Origin: a virus
Length of the DNA: 64,000 nucleotides
Strand: one strand, 5' to 3'
Virus record (IMG/VR): IMGVR_UViG_3300044547_000928
Location: 1 to 64,000 of that record
Both the position numbers and the translations under genes were made by a program. The first letter of the stretch is position 1, and each line of letters opens with the position of its first letter. This document shows positions 741 to 21,203 of this stretch, piece by piece. A model generated the notes under the pieces. It was not told the origin of the DNA. It searched no databases and saw nothing but the letters and a program-made list of their open reading frames with translations.

Positions 741-947
741 ATGCCTATCTATGTATACAGATTTGAAGACGGTACGGAAGTCGAAATGGCTCAAGGTATC
801 CGTGAAGATGCCTATGAAGTACTCCCTCACCCAGTTACGCGCGCTGTAGGGCCTGTAAGGCGCGTATACGGGCGCGTTGGAGTGGCCTTTAAGGGTGGCG
901 GCTTCTATAAGACCTCTAATAGACCCAAAGAAACGGGCGGCGAGTAA
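741..947 (+). CDS. FmdB-like protein without the zinc cysteines
   Basis: The 68-residue product starts MPIYVYRFEDG and ends with FKGGGFYKTSNRP. Both ends match the FmdB family of small putative regulators (MPxYxYRCxxC at the start, FKGSGFYxTD at the end). The CxxC pairs that bind zinc in typical members are absent here. Its last codons double as the first box of the repeat element at 924. It is preceded by a promoter 9 bases from the ATG. Confidence 0.7.
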   Translation: MPIYVYRFEDGTEVEMAQGIREDAYEVLPHPVTRAVGPVRRVYGRVGVAFKGGGFYKTSNRPKETGGE

Positions 948-1062
948 AATAAACCCGATGTCGATGGAACACCATATTCTTCGGCCGCAGGCCAATTAAA
1001 GCCAAAAAAGACAAAATAAAACCGAATCTGCTGGAACACCATATTCTTGGCGGATAGGGGAC
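924..1062. repeat. Two-box repeat element, copy 1 (tandem 1a and 1b)
   Basis: Copy 1a has CCCAAAGAAACGG (924-936), AAATAAACCCGA (947-958) and GGAACACCATATTCT (966-980). Copy 1b repeats the last two boxes (1014-1025 and 1033-1047) followed by GGATAGGGGAC (1052-1062). The gap between AAATAAACC and TATTCT is 19 bp in 1a and 18-19 bp in 1b. Copy 1a overlaps the 3' end of the FmdB-like gene. Confidence 0.8.
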
Positions 1063-1111
1063 ACTTCTATCCAGACGGTGGATAAAGCGCATTTATTTAA
1101 TGTTATAGTCC

Positions 1112-1123
1112 GTGATATATCAC
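1112..1123. promoter_or_regulatory. Palindromic operator GTGATATATCAC
   Basis: Perfect 12-bp palindrome lying 19 bp upstream of the -35 box at 1143. One of thirteen TGATATATCA sites in the left arm. Confidence 0.7.
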
Positions 1124-1142
1124 TGAAATATTACGAACAATG

Positions 1143-1171
1143 TTGTGAATAGCACTCAGACCTGCTATAAT
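1143..1171 (+). promoter_or_regulatory. Promoter TTGTGA-17-TATAAT
   Basis: TTGTGA (1143-1148) and TATAAT (1166-1171) with a 17-bp spacer, upstream of a strong GGAGGAGGTG ribosome site and the 50-residue gene at 1202. Confidence 0.7.
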
Positions 1172-1201
1172 TGACTCATAACTAAATGGAGGAGGTGAAT
1201 A

Positions 1202-1354
1202 ATGGAAGTAAATATCTTTGATAACTCTACCGAAGCGCGTCGAGCGATGGCGGTAAAAATGTTTAGATACGAGCAGTGGTGTAAGACGCAAGGACTAGAT
1301 GTCGAGGACGACAACAACTGGAATAGTTTTAGCGAGATGATGAATAACCGCTGA
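1202..1354 (+). CDS. Small acidic hypothetical protein
   Basis: Fifty codons follow an unusually strong GGAGGAGGTG ribosome site and a 17-bp-spaced promoter. The product begins MEVNIFDNSTEARRAMAVKMF and is helical and polar with no metal-binding pattern. The stop codon overlaps a degenerate copy of the TGATATATCA operator (1351-1362). Function unknown. Confidence 0.7.
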   Translation: MEVNIFDNSTEARRAMAVKMFRYEQWCKTQGLDVEDDNNWNSFSEMMNNR

Positions 1355-1427
1355 TATATTACCAAAGGCAGGTTGTGATAGAACCCTGCAGGTCGTATAC
1401 TCGGATATCTAACATAATGGAGAAAAT

Positions 1428-1769
1428 ATGCTCTCAAAAGAGGCGCTAGAGAAATTGTCCCCCTATTGGCTTCGTCAGTATCAGATATTCTTCTGTACGG
1501 GCGTTGGCAAGATGTGGAGAATTGTACTTTCGTTTTGGGGCGCTGCGTGTTTCGTAGAAGTCCAACCAGCAATTTCAATCGGGTTTTTCCTGTGCGGAAC
1601 TTGGTTATTCGTAAGTACCATTCACAAGCATGTGTGGGGATTGTATAAGTTTATGTACGGCCCAACACCAAGCCAACTAGTAAGGAGTTACAACAAAATA
1701 TGGCGCGTCGCTCAAAAAGGACCAATCCAAACAAAAATAACGGTACCATCCTCGCAAAATACGCCGTAG
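1428..1769 (+). CDS. Small membrane protein
   Basis: The 113-residue product has two hydrophobic segments (about residues 31-42 and 45-65) between polar ends and starts after GGAG. Its last 70 bases overlap the next gene in another frame, so the true stop region or the next start could be misjudged. No family recognised. Confidence 0.6.
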   Translation: MLSKEALEKLSPYWLRQYQIFFCTGVGKMWRIVLSFWGAACFVEVQPAISIGFFLCGTWLFVSTIHKHVWGLYKFMYGPTPSQLVRSYNKIWRVAQKGPIQTKITVPSSQNTP

Positions 1770-1954
1770 TCGTCTGTCAAGGCGCTTACATCGAGTGCGA
1801 TACATGTTGCTTTACAAGTCCGACGATGTATGAGTTCGAAGACGGCTCATGCATCTGCGAGACCTGTTTACACGGAATGCAACCTATGGAGTACCTTATG
1901 GCAGGAATATTTATGTCGGGTGGGATATACGGTTACGGAGGAGATTCCTGGTGA
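1700..1954 (+). CDS. Cys-rich zinc-binding-like protein
   Basis: The 84-residue product carries a C-x7-CDTCC cluster and CICETC, arranged like a zinc ribbon, then a Gly/Met/Tyr-rich tail. A start at 1700 uses AAGGAG placed rather far upstream (about 13 bases). It overlaps the end of the membrane protein gene before it. Function unknown. Confidence 0.6.
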   Translation: MARRSKRTNPNKNNGTILAKYAVVVCQGAYIECDTCCFTSPTMYEFEDGSCICETCLHGMQPMEYLMAGIFMSGGIYGYGGDSW

Positions 1955-2112
1955 GCAAGATGCCATACAACTGGAAGTGCGCGGTGTGCGGAAGAAAGAC
2001 TGGAACAATTAGTTCTATGTATCCGCCAGAGTGCACCAATCCAGAGAAACACTCAACAAAAGTCGTTGAGATGGAACTTATAACACCCAAGAAAGATAAC
2101 AAGGTAGAATAA
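1951..2112 (+). CDS. Zinc-knuckle miniprotein (GTG start)
   Basis: Fifty-three codons start at a GTG that overlaps the preceding stop (GTGA) behind GGAGGAG. It has CAVC near residue 10 and a later C-x7-H, suggesting one zinc site. Overlap with the gene before implies coupled translation. Confidence 0.65.
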   Translation: MSKMPYNWKCAVCGRKTGTISSMYPPECTNPEKHSTKVVEMELITPKKDNKVE

Positions 2113-2116
2113 AATA

Positions 2117-2581
2117 ATGGAACAGAAGCGACGCAAGCATATCGACAGGATTATCCTCATGGATTTGAATGTCGCCCTTTCAAGCAATTTTAAGGACATG
2201 CGGAACCACAACTTTGAGACTTTCGTCAAGGAAGTCGAGGAGTATCGCGACTGGATGGTAGACCTTCTTCGTGACGAGTATGTAATTTTAATTACGGCTC
2301 GTGACCAGAAGTGGGCGCGCCCAACCCTAAAGCGTATCTGGGACACTAACCAGTGGTCGCCGAACCATGCAATGTTCAATGACACAGGCATCTCTGGTTC
2401 TGAGGCACCCCTGGTGAAGAAGAAGCAAGTCCTTGAAAAAGTATTTCCGATGTACGGAGATAACCCTAAACAATATTTTGCTATCGAGTCAAACATTCGC
2501 ACGCGCGAAATGTATGCCTCACTAGGAGTGAATGTATTTGATTGCGAGCGCGAAGGAAAGTGGGATAATCTTCCCTTCTAG
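2117..2581 (+). CDS. HAD-like phosphatase fold protein, catalytic site altered
   Basis: The 154-residue product has the order of motifs seen in HAD and T4 polynucleotide-kinase phosphatase domains: a hydrophobic strand ending in MDLNVAL (usual DxDxT), VILITAR, lysines in PLVKKKQVLEKVF, and a final FAIESNIRTREMYASLGV where active members have DD or DN. The second nucleophile-loop Asp is Asn and the last acidic pair is ES, so activity is doubtful. Four bases separate it from the previous gene. Confidence 0.6.
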   Translation: MEQKRRKHIDRIILMDLNVALSSNFKDMRNHNFETFVKEVEEYRDWMVDLLRDEYVILITARDQKWARPTLKRIWDTNQWSPNHAMFNDTGISGSEAPLVKKKQVLEKVFPMYGDNPKQYFAIESNIRTREMYASLGVNVFDCEREGKWDNLPF

Positions 2582-2582
2582 G

Positions 2583-2611
2583 TTGCAATCTGATATATCA
2601 GTGAGTACAAT
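2583..2611 (+). promoter_or_regulatory. Promoter with operator inside its spacer
   Basis: TTGCAA (2583-2588) and TACAAT (2606-2611) are 17 bp apart. The palindrome CTGATATATCAG occupies 2590-2601, exactly between the two boxes, so a bound protein would block RNA polymerase. Confidence 0.75.
2590..2601. promoter_or_regulatory. Palindromic operator CTGATATATCAG
   Basis: Perfect 12-bp palindrome in the spacer of the promoter at 2583-2611. It is the clearest sign that this repeated site is a repressor operator. Confidence 0.75.
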
Positions 2612-2661
2612 GTAATAAGCAATACTTAATAACTAAACAACAACAATAATAGGAGAATATA

Positions 2662-2901
2662 ATGACCGCGATAGAATTTCGCAATCCACCGACACCCAAG
2701 AACGGCTCGCCAGGGCAAGTTCGTAAGTTCGTAGAACAACTGATGGCAAGTCCTAACACATGGGCTGTGTACAGTGCAGGCAATACAGCACGCACGGGTC
2801 ACTCAAAGGCGCAGCAATATAAAAAGCGTTACCCTGGAACTGAATGGCTCGTTCGTTCAGAAGGCGAAGGATACACAGTGTTTGGTCGCTGGGTAGGATA
2901 G
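2662..2901 (+). CDS. Hypothetical phage protein
   Basis: The 79-residue product (TAIEFRNPPTPKNGSPGQVRKFVEQL, then a C-terminal GRWVG) follows AGGAG and the operator-controlled promoter. It looks like a small soluble alpha/beta protein of a type common in actinophages. No function can be assigned. Confidence 0.7.
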   Translation: MTAIEFRNPPTPKNGSPGQVRKFVEQLMASPNTWAVYSAGNTARTGHSKAQQYKKRYPGTEWLVRSEGEGYTVFGRWVG

Positions 2902-2938
2902 TTAAAAACTATACGATTTAAAGTGGCAGTATGGAGAC

Positions 2939-3187
2939 ATGCAGCCACTCAAATTATCCGCTCGGATGCCAACCTTCGAGTCCTGCATAGAACTAGCGGC
3001 GTTGCTACGCGCAATCGACGGCGAAGCACTCGTCGCTATTTCGGAGGGGAGGAATTGCAGTGGAGCCTGGATGTTCGACAGTAATTTTATTCTGGAGAAT
3101 GTCTCAATAAGGTTTCGCGACCTGCAAGAATTATTCGCTACCTCGATTGCAGAAATGGGAGGCACTTCGTTTCTGGCGCGGGTCTAG
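2939..3187 (+). CDS. Hypothetical protein
   Basis: The 82-residue product starts 37 bases after the previous stop behind GGAG. A nearby ATG at 2931 opens only 19 codons, so 2939 is preferred. The two-box repeat begins directly at its stop codon. No family recognised. Confidence 0.55.
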   Translation: MQPLKLSARMPTFESCIELAALLRAIDGEALVAISEGRNCSGAWMFDSNFILENVSIRFRDLQELFATSIAEMGGTSFLARV

Positions 3188-3259
3188 CCCAAGGGAAACG
3201 GCAGCGATTAAAATAAAACCTAAGTTCTTGGAACACCATATTCTCGCTGGATAGGGGAC
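3188..3259. repeat. Two-box repeat element, copy 2
   Basis: CCCAAGGGAAACGG (3188-3201), AAATAAAACC (3211-3220), GGAACACCATATTCT (3230-3244) and GGATAGGGGAC (3249-3259). It abuts the stop codon of the preceding gene. Confidence 0.85.
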
Positions 3260-3303
3260 AACCCACCCAGTAGATGTGGTGTTTTTTTATTTTATCTACA
3301 ATC

Positions 3304-3314
3304 TGATATATCAC
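3304..3314. promoter_or_regulatory. Operator site TGATATATCAC
   Basis: TGATATATCA core, 45 bases after repeat copy 2 and upstream of a TATACT -10 box at 3348 and the gene at 3384. Confidence 0.65.
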
Positions 3315-3383
3315 AAACAAATCCGCCCGCTTTGTGCAATATTGCTGTATACTTGAAGTAACGCAATAACAAAGGAGAAACCA

Positions 3384-3632
3384 ATGGAAGAAAAACAATT
3401 TATCGGTGGAAACCCAGACTGGTTTGAGTGCAGGTGTGGAAACACGCCTCACTCATCTGGCTTCTATCCATGCCATCAGAACGGAGTAATCCGAGAGCCT
3501 GATGGCGACTGGAAGGGTATCTATGTCTGCTTTGACTGCGGAAATATTATTCAGTGGGATACTTTAGAAATAATTGCACAAGCAACCTACATGGCTGGAC
3601 TGTTTAATGCAGATTATTTCAGCACTCTGTAG
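3384..3632 (+). CDS. Zinc-ribbon protein
   Basis: An 82-residue product behind a consensus AAAGGAGAAACC ribosome site. CRCGN near residue 17, a lone Cys near 31 and CFDCGN near 53 make a four-cysteine zinc ribbon, suggesting nucleic-acid or protein binding. Stands as its own transcription unit. Confidence 0.7.
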   Translation: MEEKQFIGGNPDWFECRCGNTPHSSGFYPCHQNGVIREPDGDWKGIYVCFDCGNIIQWDTLEIIAQATYMAGLFNADYFSTL

Positions 3633-3700
3633 TTGCAATTCACAAGTAACCGTGCTATAATAGATACAACACAATAAACAACTTAACAAAGGAGAATACA

Positions 3701-5925: not shown

Positions 5926-6300
5926 ATGTCTAGCCCTTGGGATTCTTACCGCGCGCCCAAGCAACGCTATGCACAAACAGAGTGGGAGTCAGGTACGGGT
6001 TTCCGTATCGAGCGACCAGCGTGGACAAAGCAGGCGAACTGCAAAGACGAGCCAACAACTACCTTCTATCCCGCACCTGGCGATGTAGAAAAGTTAAGGC
6101 GCGCCAAAAGCATTTGCAAGGAGTGTGTAGTAAGACACGATTGTTTAGAATCAGCATTGGAGTCATCAGAAAGATTCGGAATATGGGGTGGCAAGTCTGC
6201 CCGCGAACGAAGTCTTATTTTAAGAGCACAAAGGCTCTTGAATAGCGGAAGTTCAAAGCATTTCGAGGAAGATGAAGGCGACTCTGAGGTGACATCCTGA
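5926..6300 (+). CDS. whiB: WhiB-family iron-sulfur transcription regulator
   Basis: The 124-residue product has the four cysteines of a WhiB [4Fe-4S] site: C39, then C64, C67 and C73 in CKECVVRHDC, followed by the GIWGGKSARER turn and basic segment near residues 85-95. WhiB proteins partner with the primary sigma factor of actinobacteria, so this phage copy probably redirects host transcription. The end of the gene carries the first of four GTGRCA palindromes, which could be a site for its own control. Confidence 0.93.
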   Translation: MSSPWDSYRAPKQRYAQTEWESGTGFRIERPAWTKQANCKDEPTTTFYPAPGDVEKLRRAKSICKECVVRHDCLESALESSERFGIWGGKSARERSLILRAQRLLNSGSSKHFEEDEGDSEVTS

Positions 6301-7206: not shown

Positions 7207-7275
7207 CCCAAGGGAAACGGAGTGCGAAAATAAACCCGAACAATCTGGAACACCATATTCTCAGGGAGCAGGGGT
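7207..7275. repeat. Two-box repeat element, copy 3
   Basis: CCCAAGGGAAACGG (7207-7220), AAATAAACCCGA (7228-7239), GGAACACCATATTCT (7247-7261), then GGAGCAGGGGT. The AAATAAACC to TATTCT gap is 19 bp. Confidence 0.85.
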
Positions 7276-7442: not shown

Positions 7443-7471
7443 TTGCAAAGCCTGCGATAAAGTGATACAAT
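7443..7471 (+). promoter_or_regulatory. Promoter TTGCAA-17-TACAAT
   Basis: TTGCAA (7443-7448) and TACAAT (7466-7471), upstream of the DUF932 gene. The stretch 7272-7442 between repeat copy 3 and this promoter holds only the operator at 7333. Confidence 0.7.
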
Positions 7472-7517: not shown

Positions 7518-8558
7518 ATGGGAATGGAAACTACCGAGTGGTACAACACGCAGATTTTGGTTGGTATGACCGACCAGCGTGGAAATGCGTGGCACTACAA
7601 GAAAGAAGCACAAGGCGACGAGCCGAACCATTATGCAGGTGCAATTCCTGTTGAAGATGTACAGCGCAGGCTGTTCTCGTGGTCGGCACAAGAAGCCCCA
7701 GTCTTCATTCAAGTACCAGCAACAATGGAAGATGCGACAAGCGTTGACGAAAACGGTAATCCCGTCAAGTTCATCAAGGCTGGAAATCGCAAAGCAATCC
7801 TACGAGATGATACAAACGACCTGTTTGAAATCTTCAAAGATGGCTATGCAATCCACCAGTACAACGACTGGCTCGTAAAGAACCTCGCAAATCTCGTAGA
7901 TGATGATTTGGCAATCGGTTCCGCTGGGCTACTCAAAAATGGTGGAGTGGCTTGGGTGTCGCTTGAAATGCCCGAAAGCATTGAAGTAATTGACGGGTTC
8001 AAGGTTCGCCCACACTTGCTTGCAACGACCAGTCATATCGGCACGCTGGCAACGACCTACAAGAAAGTATCTACTTTCGTGGTCTGCGACAACACGCACT
8101 CAATGGCTATGGGCGAAGATGGCGAGCAGTTCAAGGCTCGTCACTCAAAGCACAGCGCACTCAAAATCCAATCGGCTCGTGATGCGCTAGGCATTATCCA
8201 CAAAATGACTGATGATGTAATTGCAGAGATTACAAAATTGTCAGAGTGGAAAGTGACTGATGAACAGTGGAACACACTGCTCAACCAGTTAGTGCCAGTG
8301 CCTACCGACCTAGAGCAAAAGACGGCGATTACTCGTGCAGAGAATAAGCGTTGGGCGTTGAAAGACCTCTACGCTAACGATATGCGAGTAGCCCCGTGGT
8401 CGGGAAGTGCGCTCGGCGTGTTGCAGGCTTACAACACCTACAACCACCACAAGGCTGGAACCGACAAGAACCGAGTAGAGCGAAATATGCTCAACGCACT
8501 TAGCGGTTCAACTGGTACGGCAGATGCGAAAGTGTTGCAGGCTCTAGCGAGCCTGTAG
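7518..8558 (+). CDS. DUF932 phage/plasmid-like protein
   Basis: The 346-residue product fits the DUF932/TIGR03299 phage-plasmid family in length and pattern: N-terminal METTEWYNTQILVGMTDQRGNAWHY, a central GLLKNGGVAWVSLEM, and FVVCDNTHSMA. The family is common on actinophages and plasmids and has no settled biochemical role. AAAGGAG fixes the start. It is a single-gene unit with its own promoter and terminator. Confidence 0.88.
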   Translation: MGMETTEWYNTQILVGMTDQRGNAWHYKKEAQGDEPNHYAGAIPVEDVQRRLFSWSAQEAPVFIQVPATMEDATSVDENGNPVKFIKAGNRKAILRDDTNDLFEIFKDGYAIHQYNDWLVKNLANLVDDDLAIGSAGLLKNGGVAWVSLEMPESIEVIDGFKVRPHLLATTSHIGTLATTYKKVSTFVVCDNTHSMAMGEDGEQFKARHSKHSALKIQSARDALGIIHKMTDDVIAEITKLSEWKVTDEQWNTLLNQLVPVPTDLEQKTAITRAENKRWALKDLYANDMRVAPWSGSALGVLQAYNTYNHHKAGTDKNRVERNMLNALSGSTGTADAKVLQALASL

Positions 8559-10032: not shown

Positions 10033-10239
10033 ATGGAAGACAACGAAGAAAACTATATTGAAGTAGACCCAAGAGACATTGTAATCAACAGATTGCAGTC
10101 AACGATTTACATGATGTCAGCACCACACTCAACAGATGGCGGGAAAGAACCTCACTGCATTTACTGCGGCACACCATTCCCCTGCATGACATCGAGACTC
10201 GCTCGAAGGTCGGCGACTGCGTGGCGCGGGCTGGAGTAG
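10033..10239 (+). CDS. Small Cys-containing hypothetical protein
   Basis: The 68-residue product has CIYCGTPFPC, a tight three-cysteine motif suggesting a metal site, after a VDPRDIVINRLQ helix. The start follows GGAAAC only. The stop TAG abuts repeat copy 4. Confidence 0.6.
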   Translation: MEDNEENYIEVDPRDIVINRLQSTIYMMSAPHSTDGGKEPHCIYCGTPFPCMTSRLARRSATAWRGLE

Positions 10240-10308
10240 CCCAAGGGAACGGTTTCGAGAAATAAAGTCAATTAGTTCTACTTACCATATTCTCAGGCGG
10301 AGAGGGGC
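10240..10308. repeat. Two-box repeat element, copy 4 (divergent)
   Basis: CCCAAGGGAACGG (10240-10252), AAATAAAGT (10260-10268), ACCATATTCT (10284-10293) and GGAGAGGGGC (10299-10308). The 19-bp gap to TATTCT is kept though the boxes have drifted. Confidence 0.8.
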
Positions 10309-10369
10309 ATATATAACCCTCAACCTCTACTTTAGGTTTAGGCGTGGGGGCCAGGGCGCGCGGGTCGCT

Positions 10370-12299: not shown

Positions 12300-12400
12300 A
12301 CTACTCGCTTGAGCCCCTTACCCCCTTTCGGGGCTCGCGGTAGAGGTGGGGGGCTGCTTGCTTTCCTTTCGCAAGCGCCCCCACCGACCATTCAACAAGA
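12300..12400 (+). ncRNA. Candidate small RNA with two GC-rich hairpins
   Basis: GAGCCCC (12311-12317) pairs with GGGGCTC (12330-12336). GGTGGGGG...GCTTGC (12345-12361) pairs with GCAAGCGCCCCCACC (12371-12385). The window's best consensus promoter lies directly upstream and no start codon with a ribosome site follows within 150 bases. The rest of 12400-12500 holds only a 25-codon frame without a ribosome site. Confidence 0.5.
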
Positions 12401-13022: not shown

Positions 13023-13030
13023 ATTTGGTG

Positions 13031-13064
13031 CGGGCAGAGACTTATTTCCTTTCGTCTCTGCCCG
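13031..13064 (+). terminator. Hairpin terminator
   Basis: CGGGCAGAGA pairs with TCTCTGCCCG across a T/C-rich loop. Confidence 0.75.
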
Positions 13065-13077
13065 CCCTTGCTACCTG

Positions 13078-13145
13078 CCCGAGGAAACGGAGCGAGCAAA
13101 ATAAACCCTGATATTTACTCTTACCATATTCTCGCGGAGAGGGGC
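13078..13145. repeat. Two-box repeat element, copy 5
   Basis: CCCGAGGAAACGG (13078-13090), AAATAAACC (13099-13107), ACCATATTCT (13123-13132) and GGAGAGGGGC (13136-13145). The gap to TATTCT is 19 bp. Confidence 0.8.
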
Positions 13146-13664: not shown

Positions 13665-13703
13665 CCCTAGTAGGTTGCAAAGCCTACTAGGGTATGATAT
13701 AAT
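13665..13703 (+). promoter_or_regulatory. Terminator-promoter fusion module 2
   Basis: CCCTAGTAGG (13665-13674) pairs with CCTACTAGGG (13683-13692). TTGCAA (13675-13680) is in the loop and TATAAT is 13698-13703. A7 precedes the hairpin. Confidence 0.88.
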
Positions 13704-14426: not shown

Positions 14427-14434
14427 AAAAACTT

Positions 14435-14474
14435 AGCCTGCGAGGTTGCAAAGCCTCGCAGGCTATGGTATAAT
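14435..14474 (+). promoter_or_regulatory. Terminator-promoter fusion module 3
   Basis: AGCCTGCGAGG (14435-14445) pairs with CCTCGCAGGCT (14454-14464). TTGCAA (14446-14451) is in the loop, TATAAT is 14469-14474. A7 precedes it. Confidence 0.9.
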
Positions 14475-15018: not shown

Positions 15019-15031
15019 ATATAAAAAACTT

Positions 15032-15071
15032 AGCCCGCTAGGTTGCAAAGCCTAGCGGGCTATGCTATAAT
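15032..15071 (+). promoter_or_regulatory. Terminator-promoter fusion module 5
   Basis: AGCCCGCTAGG (15032-15042) pairs with CCTAGCGGGCT (15051-15061). TTGCAA (15043-15048) is in the loop, TATAAT is 15066-15071. Confidence 0.9.
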
Positions 15072-15244: not shown

Positions 15245-15586
15245 ATGATAACAACAGTTCAGCGAGAAGGTCGGGAATTACACCCGCTAATCCTTCTCAA
15301 GCAAATCGGCGGTATGAACCTACTCGCAATTAGCGGTGGTCGTAAGTCGGTTATTTTCTACACAGACCTAGACGGTGATACCTACCCTATCGGCGTAGCG
15401 TTGCCAGTCGCACAGGGTCGCAGTGTTGAGGTCACGCTTGACTGGAATGACACCTACCGAGTGCGCCGAATTCGCAAAGTCACCAACGGCGCAAAGCGTG
15501 GTAGCGAAGTCGTAGAGGCGGAACAGACCGAGGTCTATTGCGAGGAAGTGGGCGAAGTTGCCTACTCTATGAGTTGCTGGAAATAA
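15245..15586 (+). CDS. Hypothetical protein
   Basis: The 113-residue product (LILLKQIGGMNLLAISGGRKSVIFYTDLDGDTYPIGVALPV) resembles the small beta proteins of unknown role found in many actinophages and plasmids. GAAAGGCAAAC sets the start. Lies between its promoter and module 6. Confidence 0.7.
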   Translation: MITTVQREGRELHPLILLKQIGGMNLLAISGGRKSVIFYTDLDGDTYPIGVALPVAQGRSVEVTLDWNDTYRVRRIRKVTNGAKRGSEVVEAEQTEVYCEEVGEVAYSMSCWK

Positions 15587-15668: not shown

Positions 15669-15842
15669 ATGACCGAGGAACAGGCAATTAGATACATCAC
15701 CGAGGCATTCCGCGCGAGGGTAGTACCTCTAAGCGAAATCGTAAAGGTGCGTTCACTGAAATCACTCAACGCCGAACTGTACGCCGAAATGGACAACGAG
15801 GGCGCGTTTGACGAACCGTGGTGGCTTGACTACCAAGAGTGA
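15669..15842 (+). CDS. Small acidic hypothetical protein
   Basis: Fifty-seven codons (MTEEQAIRYITEAFRARVVP, ending EPWWLDYQE) follow GAAGGGAAAAC and module 6. Helical. The sequence CGGAGAGGGGAC right after the stop is an isolated copy of a box from the two-box repeats. Confidence 0.65.
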   Translation: MTEEQAIRYITEAFRARVVPLSEIVKVRSLKSLNAELYAEMDNEGAFDEPWWLDYQE

Positions 15843-15898
15843 GGGCGGAGAGGGGACGCGCGGGCTTCTGCTGGCGTAAAGAAAAATAGAATTACAAG

Positions 15899-15927
15899 TT
15901 GTAAATACCACGAAAGGGTGCTATAAT
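15899..15927 (+). promoter_or_regulatory. Promoter TTGTAA-17-TATAAT for a leaderless gene
   Basis: TTGTAA (15899-15904) and TATAAT (15922-15927). The ATG is the seventh base after the -10 box. Confidence 0.75.
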
Positions 15928-15933
15928 ATACTT

Positions 15934-16098
15934 ATGGGAAAAACAATGAGAAACAACAACTACAAAGCGTGGGGCGAGGCAGACCGCCAAGCCTTCCGTG
16001 ACGGAAACAAACTCCGTGCCTCAACCATTCAGGGCAAGCGCAAGCCAGCCCCGACACTTGAGGAATGGGGCGACCTTGAGGACTGGCTAGATGATTAG
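15934..16098 (+). CDS. Small basic protein, probably leaderless
   Basis: Fifty-four codons (MGKTMRNNNYKAWGEADRQAFRDGNKLRAS). The first ATG coincides with the expected transcription start, so translation would begin without a leader. An internal ATG at 15946 is a less likely start. Ends in an acidic LEEWGDLEDWLDD tail and overlaps the next gene by 8 bases. Confidence 0.65.
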   Translation: MGKTMRNNNYKAWGEADRQAFRDGNKLRASTIQGKRKPAPTLEEWGDLEDWLDD

Positions 16099-16255
16099 CC
16101 AGCAGAGGGTCTGCTCAATTTGCACAGCGCCGTGGAGCGTTGGCGAGGACGAGGACTACCGAGACCCGCATACCAAAGAACTGGTCTGCAACACCTGCGC
16201 CCTTGACGGTGAAGGAACAGACTACTACGAACGAAAGGATTATTCAGATGACTAG
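16091..16255 (+). CDS. Zinc-ribbon protein
   Basis: Fifty-four codons with CSIC near residue 8 and CNTC near 33 and an acidic C-terminus. It overlaps genes on both sides by 8 bases, which suggests translational coupling in a three-gene set. Confidence 0.65.
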   Translation: MISQQRVCSICTAPWSVGEDEDYRDPHTKELVCNTCALDGEGTDYYERKDYSDD

Positions 16256-16493
16256 CCAACTACCACCAAACACCACCAAACTACTAGCACAAGGCGTGGA
16301 CGCTATGGATATCCTGCACCACCACCTAAAGAGCCTTATATACGAGGCTCAGGGTGATAGCGAGTACGGAGAGCCAAGCGACCCATACGCACGAGGAGTA
16401 TTTGACACGCTTTGCGAAATGTACCGCTTGACCTACGCGCTTACCTTTGCAGAAATGGATAAAGGTTGCAATTCAGCCGAGAGCGTGATATAA
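16248..16493 (+). CDS. Hypothetical protein
   Basis: The 81-residue product (MTSQLPPNTTKLLAQGVDAMDILHHHLKSLIY) starts behind GAAAGGA inside the end of the zinc-ribbon gene. Helical. The same frame is open upstream, but the ribosome site and overlap favour this start. Its last bases contain the next promoter. Confidence 0.65.
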   Translation: MTSQLPPNTTKLLAQGVDAMDILHHHLKSLIYEAQGDSEYGEPSDPYARGVFDTLCEMYRLTYALTFAEMDKGCNSAESVI

Positions 16494-16494
16494 T
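16466..16494 (+). promoter_or_regulatory. Promoter TTGCAA-17-TATAAT
   Basis: TTGCAA (16466-16471) and TATAAT (16489-16494) over the end of the preceding gene. Confidence 0.75.
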
Positions 16495-16521
16495 ATATAC
16501 ATACACCGAAAGGACAAAACA

Positions 16522-16851
16522 ATGAACACAACACAACTAGAACGCAGAGAGTGGTTAGTAACAGCACTCATAGTGGTATTCTTTACAGGGCTTATTCTCT
16601 TTATTTGGAATGACTTCTATGACCGAATGACACAGTACTCGTGCGACCCTTCGCCACACATTGTGCAAGAGGGCGACACTATCTACAAGTTCGGAATGGC
16701 GTACTGCGTAGGTGCGCGTGAGGTTGCCATAGATGACGCCGTAGAGGCTTACGGAACGAACCTGCAAATTGGGCAGGTAATCTACCTACCGATAAAGAAC
16801 GGTTGCCCACTCAGAGTGACTGACGGCGGGGAAGTGTTCCAAGACTGCTGA
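16522..16851 (+). CDS. Membrane-anchored LysM-like protein
   Basis: The 109-residue product has one membrane helix (about residues 12-29) and then an outside domain whose PHIVQEGDTIYKFGMAYCV...LQIGQVIYLPI matches the start and end of a LysM domain. LysM binds peptidoglycan or chitin-type sugars. Cysteines near 41, 62 and 95 may pair. I infer an envelope protein that could act in exclusion or lysis timing. Confidence 0.65.
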   Translation: MNTTQLERREWLVTALIVVFFTGLILFIWNDFYDRMTQYSCDPSPHIVQEGDTIYKFGMAYCVGAREVAIDDAVEAYGTNLQIGQVIYLPIKNGCPLRVTDGGEVFQDC

Positions 16852-16868
16852 CCCGCGAGGGCCCAGGG

Positions 16869-16940
16869 CCCAAGGGAACGGAAGCGCTAAATAAACCCGA
16901 TACTAAGGAAACACCATATTCTCCGAGGGCGGAGAGGGGC
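16869..16940. repeat. Two-box repeat element, copy 6
   Basis: CCCAAGGGAACGG (16869-16881), AAATAAACCCGA (16889-16900), GGAAACACCATATTCT (16907-16922), GGAGAGGGGC (16931-16940). The gap to TATTCT is 19 bp. An SOS-box-like site follows 6 bases later. Confidence 0.85.
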
Positions 16941-16945
16941 ATAAA

Positions 16946-16959
16946 CGAACATATGTTCG
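16946..16959. promoter_or_regulatory. SOS-box-like site CGAACATATGTTCG
   Basis: A perfect 14-bp palindrome matching the Gram-positive LexA/DinR box CGAAC-N4-GTTCG. Confidence 0.7.
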
Positions 16960-17017
16960 GTCTAACTCAAACCCTAACCCTCAAGTAGAGGTTTAGGTCT
17001 GGGGCACGGGCGCAAAG

Positions 17018-17038
17018 TTATCCACAGCCTGTGGATAA
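17018..17038. promoter_or_regulatory. Inverted pair of DnaA boxes
   Basis: TTATCCACA (17018-17026) and TGTGGATAA (17030-17038) are consensus DnaA boxes facing each other. A third partial box TGTGGAAAA follows. Confidence 0.75.
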
Positions 17039-17099
17039 GTCTGTGGAAAAATAAATAAAGAAAATGTCAGAAAATGCGATGAAATGCTATAAAACCGTG

Positions 17100-17105
17100 T
17101 ATAAT
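17100..17105 (+). promoter_or_regulatory. Probable -10 box
   Basis: TATAAT lies 50 bases before the next ATG. The -35 region is poor, so this promoter may need an activator. Confidence 0.4.
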
Positions 17106-17154
17106 GAATAGGTAAGCAAAACCGCTTACAGAACCTAATGAAAGGCAGTACCTA

Positions 17155-17529
17155 ATGAATACAGTACAAACCCTCATAAACGCCAAGCGAGCCGTAGAAC
17201 TCGCAACGGAAGCCTACGAAAGCGCCAAAGCGCAATTTGAGGCACAAGTTGCCGAGAGTGGCGAAAAGTCCGTGACCATTGACGGCGTGACCGTCTCGCT
17301 GGTATCGGTAGAGCGCCGAAACTTTGACACGGCAGAACTCGCCAAGCACATTACAGCGAGCACCTACCAAGCCGTTACCAAAGTGGCAGTGGATAACAAA
17401 GCCTTTGACCTTGCCCGCAAGGCTGGCGAAATCACGGAAGCCACCGAGCAGGCAGTCGTGACTATCACGCACTACAACCAAGTGCGAGTGACCGAAGCCA
17501 AAGTGGCAAAGGTGGCGCAAGTCGCCTAG
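17155..17529 (+). CDS. Coiled-coil hypothetical protein
   Basis: The 124-residue product is an Ala/Glu/Lys-rich helix at each end with a short beta segment KSVTIDGVTVSLVSVERRN between. GAAAGGCAG precedes it. This looks like a small structural or tethering protein. No family recognised. Confidence 0.65.
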   Translation: MNTVQTLINAKRAVELATEAYESAKAQFEAQVAESGEKSVTIDGVTVSLVSVERRNFDTAELAKHITASTYQAVTKVAVDNKAFDLARKAGEITEATEQAVVTITHYNQVRVTEAKVAKVAQVA

Positions 17530-17540
17530 TCGCTGGGTAG

Positions 17541-17565
17541 TCGGGCGGGCTAATCACCCGCCCGA
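17541..17565 (+). terminator. Hairpin terminator
   Basis: TCGGGCGGG pairs with CCCGCCCGA over a 7-base loop, 12 bases after the stop. Confidence 0.8.
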
Positions 17566-17570
17566 CACAC

Positions 17571-17584
17571 CGAACAGGTGTTCG
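17571..17584. promoter_or_regulatory. SOS-box-like site CGAACAGGTGTTCG
   Basis: Matches CGAAC-N4-GTTCG. The rest of 17585-17760 shows no gene, only GC-rich DNA. Confidence 0.65.
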
Positions 17585-17763
17585 CCCCGTGGGGGCAAAG
17601 TCTCCCGATATGGCGTATACCGTTCGGCGAGGTGGGCGTGAATGCCCGCCAGACGCAATAGGAAGCCTTTACAGCGTCTCGCCAGACCTCAAAAGACTGA
17701 GGGCTTAGTTTACTTTTACTCGCACAATATCGCATTGTGACGCATATGGTGGCAACCGACCCC

Positions 17764-17777: not shown

Positions 17778-17792
17778 CCTACGCCGAGGGCG

Positions 17793-17803: not shown

Positions 17804-17833
17804 AAAGAATATCGAAAATAATTCTATTTTAGG

Positions 17834-17862
17834 TTGTGTTGTGTGACAGAGTGTGCTATAGT
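17834..17862 (+). promoter_or_regulatory. Promoter TTGTGT-17-TATAGT
   Basis: TTGTGT (17834-17839) and TATAGT (17857-17862), ahead of the gene at 17904. Confidence 0.65.
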
Positions 17863-17903
17863 ATATATATAGGGAAAACGAAGTACCTATGCGAAAGGGA
17901 AAT

Positions 17904-18161: not shown

Positions 18162-18180
18162 ACGGTAGCCAGTCCGAGCC

Positions 18181-18213
18181 AACCCAGCCCGCACCCCCCG
18201 CGGGTTGGGTTTT
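18181..18213 (+). terminator. Intrinsic terminator
   Basis: AACCCA and CCCGC pair with GCGGG and TGGGTT, followed by TT. Confidence 0.8.
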
Positions 18214-18261
18214 GGCGTACCTGCCCACGGGCGGAGGCTAGTGGGTTTGGGCACGCGGGCG

Positions 18262-18376
18262 ACCAAGCCAAGAATTGCCCCAGGGCACGCTCCAGGGCTC
18301 CAGGGCGAACGAGGGAAAGTTTGCGAGACTGAGGGCTTGTCCGAGGGCGCGCGGGCGCCAGGGCGACGCAGGGCAA
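18262..18376. repeat. GC-rich GAGGGC/CAGGGC intergenic repeat, unit 1
   Basis: Dense CAGGGC and GAGGGC words and the shared string ACTGAGGGCTTGTCCGAGGG (18328-18347), which recurs at 19478 and 20298. Confidence 0.7.
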
Positions 18377-18393
18377 AAATATTTGGAAATAAG

Positions 18394-18422
18394 TTGTCAA
18401 GCGTGGCAGAGTGTGCTATACT
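18394..18422 (+). promoter_or_regulatory. Promoter TTGTCA-17-TATACT for a leaderless gene
   Basis: TTGTCA (18394-18399) and TATACT (18417-18422). The ATG is the seventh base after the -10 box. Confidence 0.75.
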
Positions 18423-18428
18423 GTATAT

Positions 18429-18608
18429 ATGACGATTACACTGAACAACCACGAAATTACATTGTCCGCCTATTGTGTGAACGACGAGGGCGCACTCGTT
18501 GTTTGTGGCTCAACCGTTGAGCACTCATACCTCGGTCGCGGAGGGCGCGAGGACAACTGGGAAAAGTTGTATGTCCCTATCTGCGCCAACTGCGGGGACT
18601 GGCTCTAG
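18429..18608 (+). CDS. Cys-containing small protein, leaderless
   Basis: The 59-residue product (MTITLNNHEITLSAYCVNDEGALVVCGSTVEHSY, ending CANCGDWL) has no ribosome site, and its ATG sits where transcription should start. Four cysteines ending in CANC suggest a zinc site. Confidence 0.65.
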   Translation: MTITLNNHEITLSAYCVNDEGALVVCGSTVEHSYLGRGGREDNWEKLYVPICANCGDWL

Positions 18609-18667
18609 TAGCCCCGCGGGCGCAAGGGCGACGGGTCAAAAATAATTTATTTATTTTGCAAATTGAC

Positions 18668-18696
18668 TTGCATATTGTCGCACGAATTGGTATACT
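18668..18696 (+). promoter_or_regulatory. Promoter TTGCAT-17-TATACT for a leaderless gene
   Basis: TTGCAT (18668-18673) and TATACT (18691-18696). The ATG at 18703 is the seventh base after the -10 box. Confidence 0.75.
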
Positions 18697-18702
18697 TGTA
18701 TT

Positions 18703-18834
18703 ATGAACAACACAACAAACACAACAACCGAGGACGATATCCAAGTATGCGAGGACTGCCAAGTGTGGGCTTGCGATTGCTTCTGTGACGAAATCGCAGA
18801 CCAGCACCGAGAAATCGCCCGAGGACTTTACTAG
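18703..18834 (+). CDS. Cys-rich 43-residue protein, leaderless
   Basis: After an Asn/Thr-rich start comes CEDCQVWACDCFC, five cysteines within thirteen residues, then a helix DEIADQHREIARGLY. Likely binds metal. No ribosome site. Ends at a hairpin. Confidence 0.65.
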   Translation: MNNTTNTTTEDDIQVCEDCQVWACDCFCDEIADQHREIARGLY

Positions 18835-18841
18835 CCCGAAG

Positions 18842-18866
18842 GGAGCAGGGCTGGCGACCCTGCTCC
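18842..18866 (+). terminator. Hairpin terminator
   Basis: GGAGCAGGG pairs with CCCTGCTCC over a 7-base loop, with no U-run. Confidence 0.75.
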
Positions 18867-18908
18867 GAGGGGCGCGCGGGCGTTGGCGTAAAATAATCTA
18901 GGAATAAG

Positions 18909-18937
18909 TTGCAAAGCGTAACAGAGTGTGCTATACT
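18909..18937 (+). promoter_or_regulatory. Promoter TTGCAA-17-TATACT
   Basis: TTGCAA (18909-18914) and TATACT (18932-18937), ahead of the gene pair at 18968. Confidence 0.75.
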
Positions 18938-18967
18938 GTAATTACCAACTCAACGAAAGGAAATGAA

Positions 18968-19105
18968 ATGACTAAGAAAATTGATTGCGGAACCTGCGGG
19001 TTCAGGGAAGCAACCCACTACTACGAGACAGAGACAGTCCACGCCGAGGGCGAGGGCGAGTACTCGTGCTGTGCTTGCGACCACGGGACAGAGGGGTGTG
19101 CGTGA
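18968..19105 (+). CDS. Cys-rich zinc-ribbon peptide
   Basis: Forty-five codons with CGTC near residue 7 and CCAC near 34 and a final Cys, an acidic zinc-ribbon-like peptide. GAAAGGAAATG precedes it. Stop overlaps the next start (TGATG). Confidence 0.65.
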   Translation: MTKKIDCGTCGFREATHYYETETVHAEGEGEYSCCACDHGTEGCA

Positions 19106-19308
19106 TGGAAACATACACCGAACACCAACTCAAGGCGAGGGTCACAGACCTAGAGTATGCGCTCTCGCAAATCGTAAGCCACATTGAGAGGTTTGCCCCC
19201 GAAATCCTCATTGAGCAAGAGGGCTACGCCTACACCGCGGGCGCACTTCAGTCCCGTCTGAAGGAAGTCCGTGCTATCGCACAGCGAGGGCTTGACCTGA
19301 TGGTATGA
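19105..19308 (+). CDS. Helical hypothetical protein
   Basis: The 67-residue product (METYTEHQLKARVTDLEYALSQIVSHIERFAPEIL) is mostly coiled-coil helix. Translation is coupled to the Cys-rich peptide before it. Followed by a strong terminator. Confidence 0.65.
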   Translation: METYTEHQLKARVTDLEYALSQIVSHIERFAPEILIEQEGYAYTAGALQSRLKEVRAIAQRGLDLMV

Positions 19309-19316
19309 AAAACAGA

Positions 19317-19348
19317 GCCCGCCCCGCACCCCCGCGGGGCGGGCTTCT
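19317..19348 (+). terminator. Intrinsic terminator
   Basis: GCCCGCCCCGC pairs with GCGGGGCGGGC, then TTCT. Confidence 0.85.
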
Positions 19349-19409
19349 GCATACCCACAGGAGGGACGACAGGGGACAAAATCGCAGGAGGGCTTGCCCT
19401 GCAATTTTG

Positions 19410-19545
19410 CGACCAACCCCCGCGGGATACCCAGGGCTCACCACGGGCGCCAGGGCGTGAGCGCGAGGGATTGTCCAACTGAGGGCTTGTTCGAGGGCTT
19501 GCGCCGCAGGAGGGGCGCCAGGGCGCGTGTCGTTGAGGGCAAAAT
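19410..19545. repeat. GC-rich GAGGGC/CAGGGC intergenic repeat, unit 2
   Basis: Shares TTGTCCAACTGAGGGCTTGT and GCCAGGGCG words with units 1 and 3. No gene is visible in 19349-19570. Confidence 0.7.
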
Positions 19546-19571
19546 AGTTTAGAAAAATCTGCCCGATAGAG

Positions 19572-19600
19572 TTGCATTGTGTGGCATAGTATGCTATACT
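19572..19600 (+). promoter_or_regulatory. Promoter TTGCAT-17-TATACT
   Basis: TTGCAT (19572-19577) and TATACT (19595-19600), ahead of the gene at 19651. Confidence 0.7.
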
Positions 19601-19650
19601 ATTATTACAAGGGCAAGCACACCGCAAGCCCCACAACGGAAGGCAACTCA

Positions 19651-19893
19651 ATGGCAAAATTGGCAGACCTAGCAACCAAGCCCGTGAAGGCGGGGCGTTC
19701 ATTCAAGGCTTCATCGTGGCGCGCGGTAGACATTGACGAGAACACCCGTCATATCTACCACTACTCCACCTTGATGGCAGAACTAACCAAGGGCGAACTG
19801 ACCCAAGTCTCCGAAGGTTGGGGCTCAATGTCAGACAAGCAAGGAATGGGCAAAATCCGCAACGCATTGTTGAAGGCTTCAGTCAAAAAATAA
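19651..19893 (+). CDS. Hypothetical protein
   Basis: The 80-residue product (MAKLADLATKPVKAGRSFKASSWRAVDIDENTRHIYHYSTLMAEL) is basic with a KASSWRAVDID strand and helices. GGAAGGCAAC sets the start. This type of sequence recurs in actinophage genomes, but no role is known to me. Confidence 0.7.
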   Translation: MAKLADLATKPVKAGRSFKASSWRAVDIDENTRHIYHYSTLMAELTKGELTQVSEGWGSMSDKQGMGKIRNALLKASVKK

Positions 19894-19908
19894 TTTAGAA
19901 AATAGTTG

Positions 19909-19946
19909 CCCCGCGGGTTGCATTGGCTCGCGGGGTATGCTATAAT
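19909..19946 (+). promoter_or_regulatory. Terminator-promoter fusion module 7
   Basis: CCCCGCG (19909-19915) pairs with CGCGGGG (19929-19935). TTGCAT (19918-19923) is in the loop, TATAAT is 19941-19946. Confidence 0.8.
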
Positions 19947-19975
19947 ATATACATAACCTAATGGAAGGAAACCAA

Positions 19976-20035
19976 ATGAGACTAATGCTTACCATCGCCC
20001 AACTAATCGCGGGACTGCGGGCGGGCAGGTTCTAA
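19976..20035 (+). CDS. 19-residue micropeptide
   Basis: MRLMLTIAQLIAGLRAGRF follows GGAAGGAAACC and module 7. It would be an amphipathic or membrane-seeking helix. The full set of signals argues for expression in spite of its size. Confidence 0.45.
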   Translation: MRLMLTIAQLIAGLRAGRF

Positions 20036-20039
20036 CCGC

Positions 20040-20345
20040 CGAGGGAACTGAGCCGAGGAGAGGCGCGCGGGCTTCGCACTCCAGGGCTCACCCAAGGGCG
20101 CACGAGGGCGACGCAGGGCTTCCGCAAGGAGGAGGGCCAGGGCGTTGGCTGGCGTTGGCGTCCCCGCAGGAGGGGCGCGCGGGCTTCCGCTGGCGTTCAG
20201 AAAAAAAACAGAGGGTCGCGGGTCAAGGGCGTTCACGCCAAGGGTTGGCACCAGGGCGCTCCCAGGGCTTCAGGTGGTGCGCGCAAATAATCGTCCAACT
20301 GAGGGCTTATCCGAGGGGGAAGGGTCGCGAGGGTGGCGCAAGGGT
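20040..20345. repeat. GC-rich GAGGGC/CAGGGC intergenic repeat, unit 3
   Basis: About 300 bases without a credible gene on the plus strand. It is packed with GCGCGGGC, CAGGGCTTC and GGCGTTGGCG words and holds the shared string at 20298-20317. Confidence 0.7.
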
Positions 20346-20354
20346 GATATGCCG

Positions 20355-20366
20355 TTGATATATCAC
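20355..20366. promoter_or_regulatory. Operator TTGATATATCAC
   Basis: TGATATATCA core, with a half-site GTGATAT 12 bases before it. Confidence 0.6.
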
Positions 20367-20418
20367 GGGAGGAGGGTCGCGAGGGTTGGCGAGGCTCACG
20401 CCCCGCCCGCCGTTGGCG

Positions 20419-20532
20419 TCAGTCCACCGCCTTGTAGCAACAATCGAGGCAGTAGCCCTCAGCGCCCTCAACCTTGTCGTTCAGGCAATCGCTTGCCTCG
20501 CACTTATTGTCTATGTCGTGTGTGTTTGTCAT
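20419..20532 (-). CDS. Cys-rich 37-residue protein on the minus strand, leaderless
   Basis: The leftward frame MTNTHDIDNKCEASDCLNDK, ending GYCLDCCYKAVD, has C-x4-C and CLDCC, a zinc-finger-like layout similar in style to the rightward Cys-rich peptides at 18703 and 18968. Its ATG is the seventh base after a minus-strand -10 box. It is the only leftward gene in the left arm. Confidence 0.6.
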   Translation of the reverse strand: MTNTHDIDNKCEASDCLNDKVEGAEGYCLDCCYKAVD

Positions 20533-20538
20533 AATAAT

Positions 20539-20567
20539 AGTATAGCACGCTATAGCATACAATGCAA
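20539..20567 (-). promoter_or_regulatory. Minus-strand promoter TTGCAT-17-TATACT
   Basis: Read leftward, TTGCAT (20567-20562) and TATACT (20544-20539) are 17 bp apart, and the ATG follows at base seven. Confidence 0.75.
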
Positions 20568-20590
20568 CTCAAATAAATAATAATTTGGGG

Positions 20591-20619
20591 TTGCCGTGCG
20601 CGACTTAGTGTGCTATAAT
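20591..20619 (+). promoter_or_regulatory. Promoter TTGCCG-17-TATAAT
   Basis: TTGCCG (20591-20596) and TATAAT (20614-20619), back to back with the minus-strand promoter. Confidence 0.7.
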
Positions 20620-20649
20620 AGTATTCTAACCTAGTGAGAGGAAAATACA

Positions 20650-20940
20650 ATGGGCAACTTACACGCAGACGGCGCTTGGATAGAATTCACCAAGTGGCGC
20701 GACACCTGCATAAACTCAACCAATATCGAGAATGTCTATATGGCAGGCGATACACGCTACACCTTGCAACTCTCGCGTAAGCAACAGCGCGACTGCGCGG
20801 TGGTGGGCGCGGTGTACCGTGCAATTCACACGGACGCCGAGACGGGCGTTACCCAAGCCGTCAAGGCAGGCTCATTCCGCATTGAGCCGAACGGCGAGGT
20901 GACACGCTACCCAGTGGGGTTGCGCGCGTTACTCCGCTAA
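20650..20940 (+). CDS. Hypothetical protein
   Basis: The 96-residue product (MGNLHADGAWIEFTKWRDTCINSTNIENVYMAGDTRYTLQLSRKQQ) looks like a mixed alpha/beta soluble protein. GAGAGGAAAATAC precedes it. Ends just before module 8. Confidence 0.65.
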   Translation: MGNLHADGAWIEFTKWRDTCINSTNIENVYMAGDTRYTLQLSRKQQRDCAVVGAVYRAIHTDAETGVTQAVKAGSFRIEPNGEVTRYPVGLRALLR

Positions 20941-20958
20941 ATAAGTGGAAAAATAGTG

Positions 20959-20998
20959 CGGGTTGGTGGTTGCAATTACTGCCAACCCGTGCTATAAT
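20959..20998 (+). promoter_or_regulatory. Terminator-promoter fusion module 8
   Basis: CGGGTTGG (20959-20966) pairs with CCAACCCG (20982-20989). TTGCAA (20970-20975) is in the loop, TATAAT is 20993-20998. No gene follows, only a CCCCGC/GCGGGG hairpin, so a short RNA is possible. Confidence 0.8.
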
Positions 20999-21045
20999 AT
21001 AAGTATGAGATAGCGCGACAGAGCCCCGCTAAAAAGGCGGCGCGG

Positions 21046-21137
21046 GGTGCTGGCGTTGGCGTGAGGGCGCAGAGGGTCGAGCCAAGGGCGCAAGGGTCGA
21101 GGGAAACGCTCAAGGGTCGAGGGCAGGGACCAGACCG
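21046..21137. repeat. GC-rich AGGGTCGAG/AGGGCGC repeat, unit 4
   Basis: GGCGTTGGCG and AGGGTCGAGGG words like those of unit 3. No gene visible. Confidence 0.6.
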
Positions 21138-21203
21138 CCCGAGGAACGGAAGCGCGAAATAAACCCGAACCCAAGGAAACACCATATTCTTGGCGCAGGG
21201 GCC
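21138..21203. repeat. Two-box repeat element, copy 7
   Basis: CCCGAGGAACGG (21138-21149), AAATAAACCCGA (21157-21168), GGAAACACCATATTCT (21175-21190). The gap to TATTCT is 19 bp. The G-box is reduced to GGCGCAGGGGCC. Confidence 0.85.

What the first reader, a model, noticed from the sequence alone, without database searches (positions are those of the whole stretch)
924..21203. Eight-copy two-box intergenic element with fixed 18-19 bp spacing
Copies at 924 (two in tandem), 3188, 7207, 10240, 13078, 16869 and 21138 share CCCAAGGGAAACGG, then AAATAAACC, then (GGAACA)CCATATTCT, then GGAGAGGGGC. AAATAAACC and TATTCT are always 18-19 bp apart, even in the divergent copies 4 and 5. Two boxes at promoter-like distance plus a purine-rich start region suggest a promoter class for a phage or alternative sigma factor, or a WhiB-dependent promoter. 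Most copies come right after a gene end and before the TGATATATCA operator. I do not recognise this element.
Basis: partly seen in the sequence, partly recalled or inferred. Interest (0 to 1): 0.85.

Follow-up and report, generated by a model that had tools for sequence, protein, structure and literature searches.

The report
Dispersed two-box phage control element
Upstream of its early genes this water-bacterium virus carries eight copies of an unrecorded two-part DNA signal, and related viruses show its key letters switched together at nearly every copy, the mark of a docking site for one of the virus's own regulatory proteins, although that protein and its exact effect are not yet proven.

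Summary
All eight copies exist (0.04 expected by chance). I found about 90 more in 13 related IMG/VR records. The distance from AATAAANNC to CCAT is identical in every copy, although the flanks vary. All copies read rightward, lie only in the early region, and are absent from 50,697 deposited phage genomes.

Three new facts bear on function. (1) Between deep branches the element stays with the downstream gene, not the upstream one (6:1, 9:0 and 8:1 in three genome sets). (2) Recognition letters switch genome-wide: column 30 differs in 7 of 8 window/G002 pairs and 11 of 12 G011/G014 pairs, while neighbouring columns hardly change. This implies a coevolving trans-acting factor. (3) In six relatives, copies 1 and 2 bracket a leftward operon encoding a metallopeptidase-like and a winged-helix protein.

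No copy-specific RNA pairing, sigma region 2, T7-type polymerase or integrase was detected; the polymerase search had no working control. WhiB is identical in two phages whose boxes differ. Genes after a copy carry ordinary sigma-A promoters as often as other early genes.

Best reading: an asymmetric operator-like site for a phage regulator of early gene blocks. A phage-specific promoter remains the main rival.

The parts
947..980 (+). Copy 1 core (box 1 AAATAAACCC, N9, GGAACACCATATTCT); full element about 920-997
1014..1047 (+). Copy 2 core, in tandem with copy 1; full element about 989-1072
3211..3244 (+). Copy 3 core; full element 3184-3269
7228..7261 (+). Copy 4 core, upstream of the DUF932-like gene 7518-8558; the copy before this gene is kept in all eight genomes compared
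10260..10293 (+). Copy 5 core, subtype without GGAACA (CTACTTACCAT); full element 10237-10318
13099..13132 (+). Copy 6 core, subtype without GGAACA (CTCTTACCAT); follows hairpin 13030-13065
16889..16922 (+). Copy 7 core; full element 16864-16943
21157..21190 (+). Copy 8 core, right end of the early region, followed by a cluster of TGATATATCA sites
1113..1122 (.). TGATATATCA palindrome between copies 1/2 and the next promoter; also at 3304, 7334, 10371, 13218 and 21216-21289 (context, not part of the core)
   Evidence: 17 matches with up to 1 mismatch against 1.9 expected
1143..1171 (+). Ordinary sigma-A-type promoter TTGTGA-17-TATAAT of the gene after copies 1/2; similar ones at 7443 and 10402 (context)
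5926..6300 (+). WhiB-family protein, 100% identical in G002, whose element letters differ

Best explanation
The element is a clade-specific cis-acting DNA control site placed upstream of early-gene blocks and read by a phage-encoded, rapidly coevolving DNA-binding regulator. I think it most likely works as an asymmetric operator. A protein, or a rigid protein complex, contacts box 1 (AAATAAANNC) and box 2 (CCATNTTYT) about 2.4 helical turns apart. It then controls entry of transcription into each block, probably by silencing or road-blocking in one direction. The candidate reader is the winged-helix protein whose operon, shared with an HExxH metallopeptidase-like protein that could act as antirepressor, is bracketed by copies 1 and 2 in relatives. 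Shown: the copies, the rigid spacing, the single orientation, the restriction to the early region, the linkage to the downstream gene, the concerted letter switches, and the bracketed operon in six relatives.
For: 87 non-redundant copies with zero spacing variation. Linkage to the downstream gene. Genome-wide concerted switches at columns 8, 9, 11, 30 and 33; column 30 differs in 7/8 and 11/12 aligned pairs while columns 22-29 never change in those pairs, against about 12% mismatch in flanks and 26% at fourfold sites. Copies 1 and 2 bracket the winged-helix/metallopeptidase operon in G011, G013, G014, G020, G021 and G022; in G013 copy 1 ends about 5 bp from the winged-helix stop codon, and copy 2 lies about 30 bp upstream of the conserved start codon in G013, G014 and G020. 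The model has a winged-helix fold at pLDDT about 90 over the core, PadR/LmrR/AspA-like with Z 10.6-11 and rmsd 1.5-2.6 A. That protein is among the fastest diverging: rank 4 of 49, 64% against a median of 88%, in the G011/G014 pair that differs at column 30. No copy-specific RNA pairing.
Against: No binding or expression data exist. The winged-helix gene was not found in the window's own sub-clade (G000, G001, G002, G004), whose records are incomplete on that side, and in that sub-clade copies 1 and 2 stand 67 bp apart with nothing between. No tyrosine integrase was found in nine records, so a lysogeny repressor is not assured. The element lies a variable 54-194 bp upstream of most sigma-A promoters, too far to block initiation directly. 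Linkage to the downstream gene is also what a promoter would show.
Confidence: 0.42

Rival explanations
1. Phage-specific promoter class: box 1 acts as a -35-like box and box 2 as a -10-like box for a phage-modified host polymerase (sigma appropriation, as with T4 MotA) or an unrecognised phage polymerase, giving a second, later transcript of early blocks that already have sigma-A promoters.
For: Orientation and upstream position; linkage to the downstream gene; often just downstream of the previous gene's terminator-like hairpin; box geometry like -35/-10; both boxes switch together; G-rich sequence right after box 2. WhiB and a sigma-region-4-like helix-turn-helix protein are encoded next to the early region.
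Against: No spacing variation in 87 copies; no sigma region 2 in 8 records; the -10-like box becomes TTTTTT in relatives; copy 1 in relatives would fire antisense into the winged-helix operon. Polymerase absence is not established, because the control did not ring.
Confidence: 0.33
2. Structured RNA (leader or processing element): CCCAAGGGAA pairs with TTTTTTGGGGC to close a stem around the conserved core.
For: Consensus complementarity with G-U pairs, up to 14 bp in single copies.
Against: Pairing is no better within copies than between permuted copies (z -0.6 overall, -0.3 within genomes). No Rfam match at any copy above the weak, below-threshold level. The element lies downstream of terminator-like hairpins and upstream of the predicted promoters.
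Confidence: 0.07
3. Partition, replication or nucleoid-organising site (centromere-like), for example for an AspA-like winged-helix protein.
For: The winged-helix model superposes well on the pNOB8 centromere-binding protein AspA (Z 10.9, rmsd 1.5 A). Many dispersed copies; DnaA-box-like pairs lie near some copies.
Against: Winged-helix similarity is generic. The sites stay with particular downstream genes and always follow their orientation.
Confidence: 0.1
4. Passive boundary or recombination sequence that moves gene cassettes.
For: Blocks are mosaic: genes upstream of a copy in one phage lie downstream of a copy in another (cross cases).
Against: Concerted single-letter switches and rigid spacing are not expected of passive homology.
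Confidence: 0.05

Closest known systems
Cluster A mycobacteriophage stoperators and operators (L5, Bxb1, TipsytheTRex; PMC9283540, PMC6550527)
   Same: Many dispersed, asymmetric, intergenic sites oriented with transcription; subcluster-specific consensus that tracks the repressor.
   Different: 13-14 bp core, whereas this core is 34 bp with two rigidly spaced boxes. No stoperator-like sequence above chance in the window. Here the site stays with downstream genes and is absent from the structural arm. The winged-helix candidate is not shown to be related to the cluster A repressor.
Cluster K SAS and extended SAS repeats (TM4 group; PMC3203893)
   Same: Restricted to the non-structural half, mostly one orientation, consensus differs by subcluster; those authors also inferred DNA-binding specificities for ESAS.
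   Different: SAS lie 3-7 bp before start codons and ESAS are 17-bp inverted repeats. This element is asymmetric and mostly about 150-260 bp upstream. No SAS above chance in the window.
T4 middle promoters (MotA box plus -10, sigma appropriation)
   Same: Two boxes at promoter-like distance in front of early genes; the winged-helix model has the T4 MotA activation domain among its top Foldseek hits (rank 5, E 0.037).
   Different: The -10-like box is not kept in relatives; the MotA similarity is generic winged-helix.
ImmR/ImmA-type regulator plus metallopeptidase modules
   Same: A DNA-binding protein and an HExxH protein in one operon, in a divergent control region.
   Different: Winged helix rather than a Cro/CI-type domain; homology not shown; no integrase found.

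Membership tests
Sigma-factor promoter class | Cognate sigma factor (region 2) encoded in the clade | tested here: not met
   PF04542: 0 of 8 records, controls rang in 10; the records may be incomplete
Sigma-factor promoter class | -10 box with conserved A at position 2 | tested here: not met
   Column 30 is T in 45 and A in 42 of 87 copies
T7-like polymerase promoters | Single-subunit RNA polymerase gene in the phage | tested here: inconclusive
   PF00940: 0 of 8 records, but the control rang nowhere
WhiB-dependent promoter | WhiB as the specificity determinant | tested here: not met
   WhiB is 100% identical in G000 and G002 while the sites switched letters; a supporting role is not excluded
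Cluster A stoperators | Dispersed asymmetric sites oriented with transcription, genome-specific consensus | tested here: met
Cluster A stoperators | 13-bp stoperator consensus | tested here: not met
   28 matches against 28 expected by chance
Cluster A stoperators | Bound by the phage repressor and blocks elongation | not testable with these tools
   needs binding and reporter assays
Cluster K SAS/ESAS | GGGATAGGAGCCC 3-7 bp before start codons | tested here: not met
   8 matches against 9.2 expected; next gene starts lie mostly over 100 bp away
Structured RNA | Copy-specific compensatory pairing | tested here: not met
   permutation tests

The most novel reading that the evidence does not exclude
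A promoter class with completely rigid box spacing, used by a phage-modified host polymerase through the winged-helix protein and/or the WhiB and sigma-region-4-like proteins, whose recognition letters switch genome-wide between sister phages.
Probability: 0.28. Interest if true: 0.75.

Novelty: new variant of a known kind. Interest (0 to 1): 0.58.

Why it matters
It gives a signature regulatory element for a group of uncultured, actinophage-like viruses known only from metagenomes. It also gives a natural experiment: paired sister phages (window/G002 and G011/G014) whose roughly ten sites each changed the same letter. That makes the identity of the reader protein, and the evolution of its specificity, directly testable by binding assays without culturing the phage.

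Tried and rejected
1) The exact window pattern in IMG/VR returned 17 unrelated single hits; relatives had to be found through terminase and DUF932. 2) The one genome-contig hit lacks the flanks and looks like chance, as does G024. 3) RNA stem: attractive by eye, rejected by permutation. 4) Hairpin around box 1/box 2: weak only (z 2.4). 5) Leftward promoter reading: considered because copy 2 is about 30 bp from the leftward start codon; no consistent -10 was seen by eye, and the element stays with rightward genes. 6) Terminator or 3'-end element: intrinsic-terminator counts before and after the element were not informative, and the upstream gene is not the conserved partner. 7) Rfam: no family at any copy above its gathering score. 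8) The first gene-call-based count of neighbours was repeated without gene calls because some upstream genes had been mis-called. 9) WhiB as the switching reader: rejected, identical protein.

Full report
WHAT IS THERE. The window is 64,000 of the 67,861 bases of a virus record with tailed-phage structural genes and a WhiB protein. Its first 21 kb hold many small rightward genes, about half with a detectable TTGNNN-17-TANNNT promoter. The reported element occurs eight times there, all rightward. AATAAANNC-N15-CCATATTCT matches exactly eight times against 0.04 expected. The boxes alone are weak or not significant (AAATAAACC is at chance level with one mismatch; CCATATTCT 26 against 14); the pair with its spacing is what stands out.

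RELATIVES. Exact-pattern scans of IMG/VR failed, but terminase and DUF932 relatives carry homologous copies. A better pattern with the common GGAACACCAT then found 36 stretches. Those whose contigs I followed up are relatives of this phage, apart from one chance-like hit (G024); 257 Gb of bacterial and archaeal genomes gave one chance-like hit. In total 14 records hold about 98 copies, 87 of them non-redundant in the set used for statistics. Every copy is rightward and lies in the early region. In the two longest records, G011 (104,851 bases) and G013 (106,278), there are 12 and 13 copies and none among the structural genes. blastn found no match in 50,697 deposited phages; such short diverged sites could be missed.

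ANATOMY. Consensus: (C)CAAGGGAACGGC, a variable stretch, [AG]AATAAANNC, nine variable bases, GGAACACCATNTTYT, variable bases, then G-rich (GGCAGGGGC). The box 1 to CCAT distance never varies: AATAAA sits at the expected place in 75 of 87 copies, the rest have substitutions, and none is shifted. The left motif's distance does vary, which shows that the profile search tolerated length changes. Copies 5 and 6 lack GGAACA and so do their syntenic partners in G001 and G002.

IT BELONGS TO THE DOWNSTREAM GENE. Comparing the window sub-clade with the other branches, pairs of copies share only the downstream gene in 6, 9 and 8 cases and only the upstream gene in 1, 0 and 1, with three different genome sets and no reliance on gene calls. 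For example, the copy before the DUF932-like gene is present in all eight genomes compared, about 220-260 bp upstream of the start. Upstream of the element there is often a GC-rich hairpin closing the previous gene; downstream come palindromes (TGATATATCA, GAAC-N4-GTTC, GTTAGG-N4-CCTAAC, DnaA-like boxes), then the sigma-A-type promoter. Genes after a copy have that promoter as often (55%) as other early genes (48%; shuffled 9%), at a variable 54-194 bp for most. So the element is additional to, not instead of, the normal promoter.

CONCERTED SWITCHES. Permuting genome labels shows strong between-genome structure at columns 8, 9, 11, 30 and 33 among others. Eight syntenic pairs between the window and G002 differ at column 30 in 7, column 9 in 7, column 8 in 6 and column 11 in 7, but never at columns 1-4, 6, 7, 10, 22-29 or 31-33; flanks differ by about 12% and fourfold sites by 26%. 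G011 and G014 differ at column 30 in 11 of 12 pairs. G013 and G020 are mixed. Parallel change at unlinked sites means that something in trans reads these letters. It is not WhiB alone, which is identical between the window and G002.

CANDIDATE READER. In G011, G013, G014, G020, G021 and G022 the first two copies bracket a leftward operon: an HExxH protein and a small protein (copy 2 and the operon also in G025). AlphaFold2 gives the small protein a canonical winged helix, closest to PadR/LmrR repressors and the centromere-binding protein AspA (Z 10.6-11); the T4 MotA activation domain is also among the Foldseek hits. Winged-helix similarity is generic and does not tell repressor from activator. 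The protein is among the fastest diverging between G011 and G014 (64% against a median of 88%, rank 4 of 49) and between G013 and G020 (rank 11 of 66). It has no match in deposited phages. In the window sub-clade the two tandem copies (924 and 990) lie where the operon would be, but part of the neighbouring region is missing from all records, so presence elsewhere is open.

MECHANISM. I favour an operator-like site for this regulator (0.42) over a phage promoter class (0.33). Both explain orientation, upstream position and concerted change. The rigid spacing, the loss of the -10-like consensus, the absence of a recognisable sigma factor and the position of copy 1 between convergent genes favour an operator. 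The linkage to downstream genes and the position after the previous gene's end fit a promoter at least as well. An RNA element is disfavoured: no copy-specific pairing.

COMPARISON. The behaviour resembles cluster A stoperators (dispersed, asymmetric, oriented, consensus co-varying with the repressor; PMC9283540, PMC6550527) and cluster K ESAS (PMC3203893), but the sequences of both are at chance level here and the architecture differs. It is therefore a new variant of a known kind rather than a member of either.

LIMITS. All records are metagenomic and their completeness is unknown. Gene calls are my own simple ones. The winged-helix link rests on position, divergence and fold only. The host is inferred as actinobacterial from WhiB and promoter style, not shown; a freshwater origin is a guess from the kind of relatives, not tested.

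Noticed in passing
window 13030-13065; also G014 15500-15539, 18955-18988, 21876-21909 and others: Perfect GC-rich hairpins in the early regions carry pyrimidine loops resembling the 16S anti-Shine-Dalgarno end (CCTCCTTTC): 27 of 134 hairpins in 8 records, against 1 with the complementary SD-like loop.
   Followed up: partly
window 13665-13692, 14434-14465, 15031-15062: Several sigma-A promoters have their -35 (TTGCAA) inside the loop of a 10-12 bp inverted repeat that reads as an intrinsic terminator on the minus strand: a promoter with a built-in insulator.
   Followed up: no
window 1113, 2591, 3304, 7334, 10371, 13218, 14112, 17794, 20356, 21216, 21253, 21280, 23249: TGATATATCA occurs 13 times exactly, all in the first 23.3 kb, often just upstream of a -35; likely an operator of another regulator.
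   Followed up: partly
window 16950-16962 and G009, G013, G020, G021 intergenic regions: GAAC-N4-GTTC sites like actinobacterial LexA boxes, and inverted TTATCCACA (DnaA-box-like) pairs, lie between the element and the promoter in several blocks.
   Followed up: no
window core columns 12-19 of each copy: The nine-base spacer has a fixed length but differs by 47% between the window and G002, faster than fourfold sites (26%); in G011/G014 it is near neutral.
   Followed up: partly
window 12300-12389: Weak Rfam hit to CcsR1 (CCUCCUCCC-loop sRNA, E 0.058, below the gathering score) in a double hairpin without an element copy.
   Followed up: no
G013 15768-17693, 74150-77016: Relatives encode a B12-dependent ribonucleotide reductase and two large adjacent ParB-like proteins next to a methyltransferase-like gene.
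   Followed up: no
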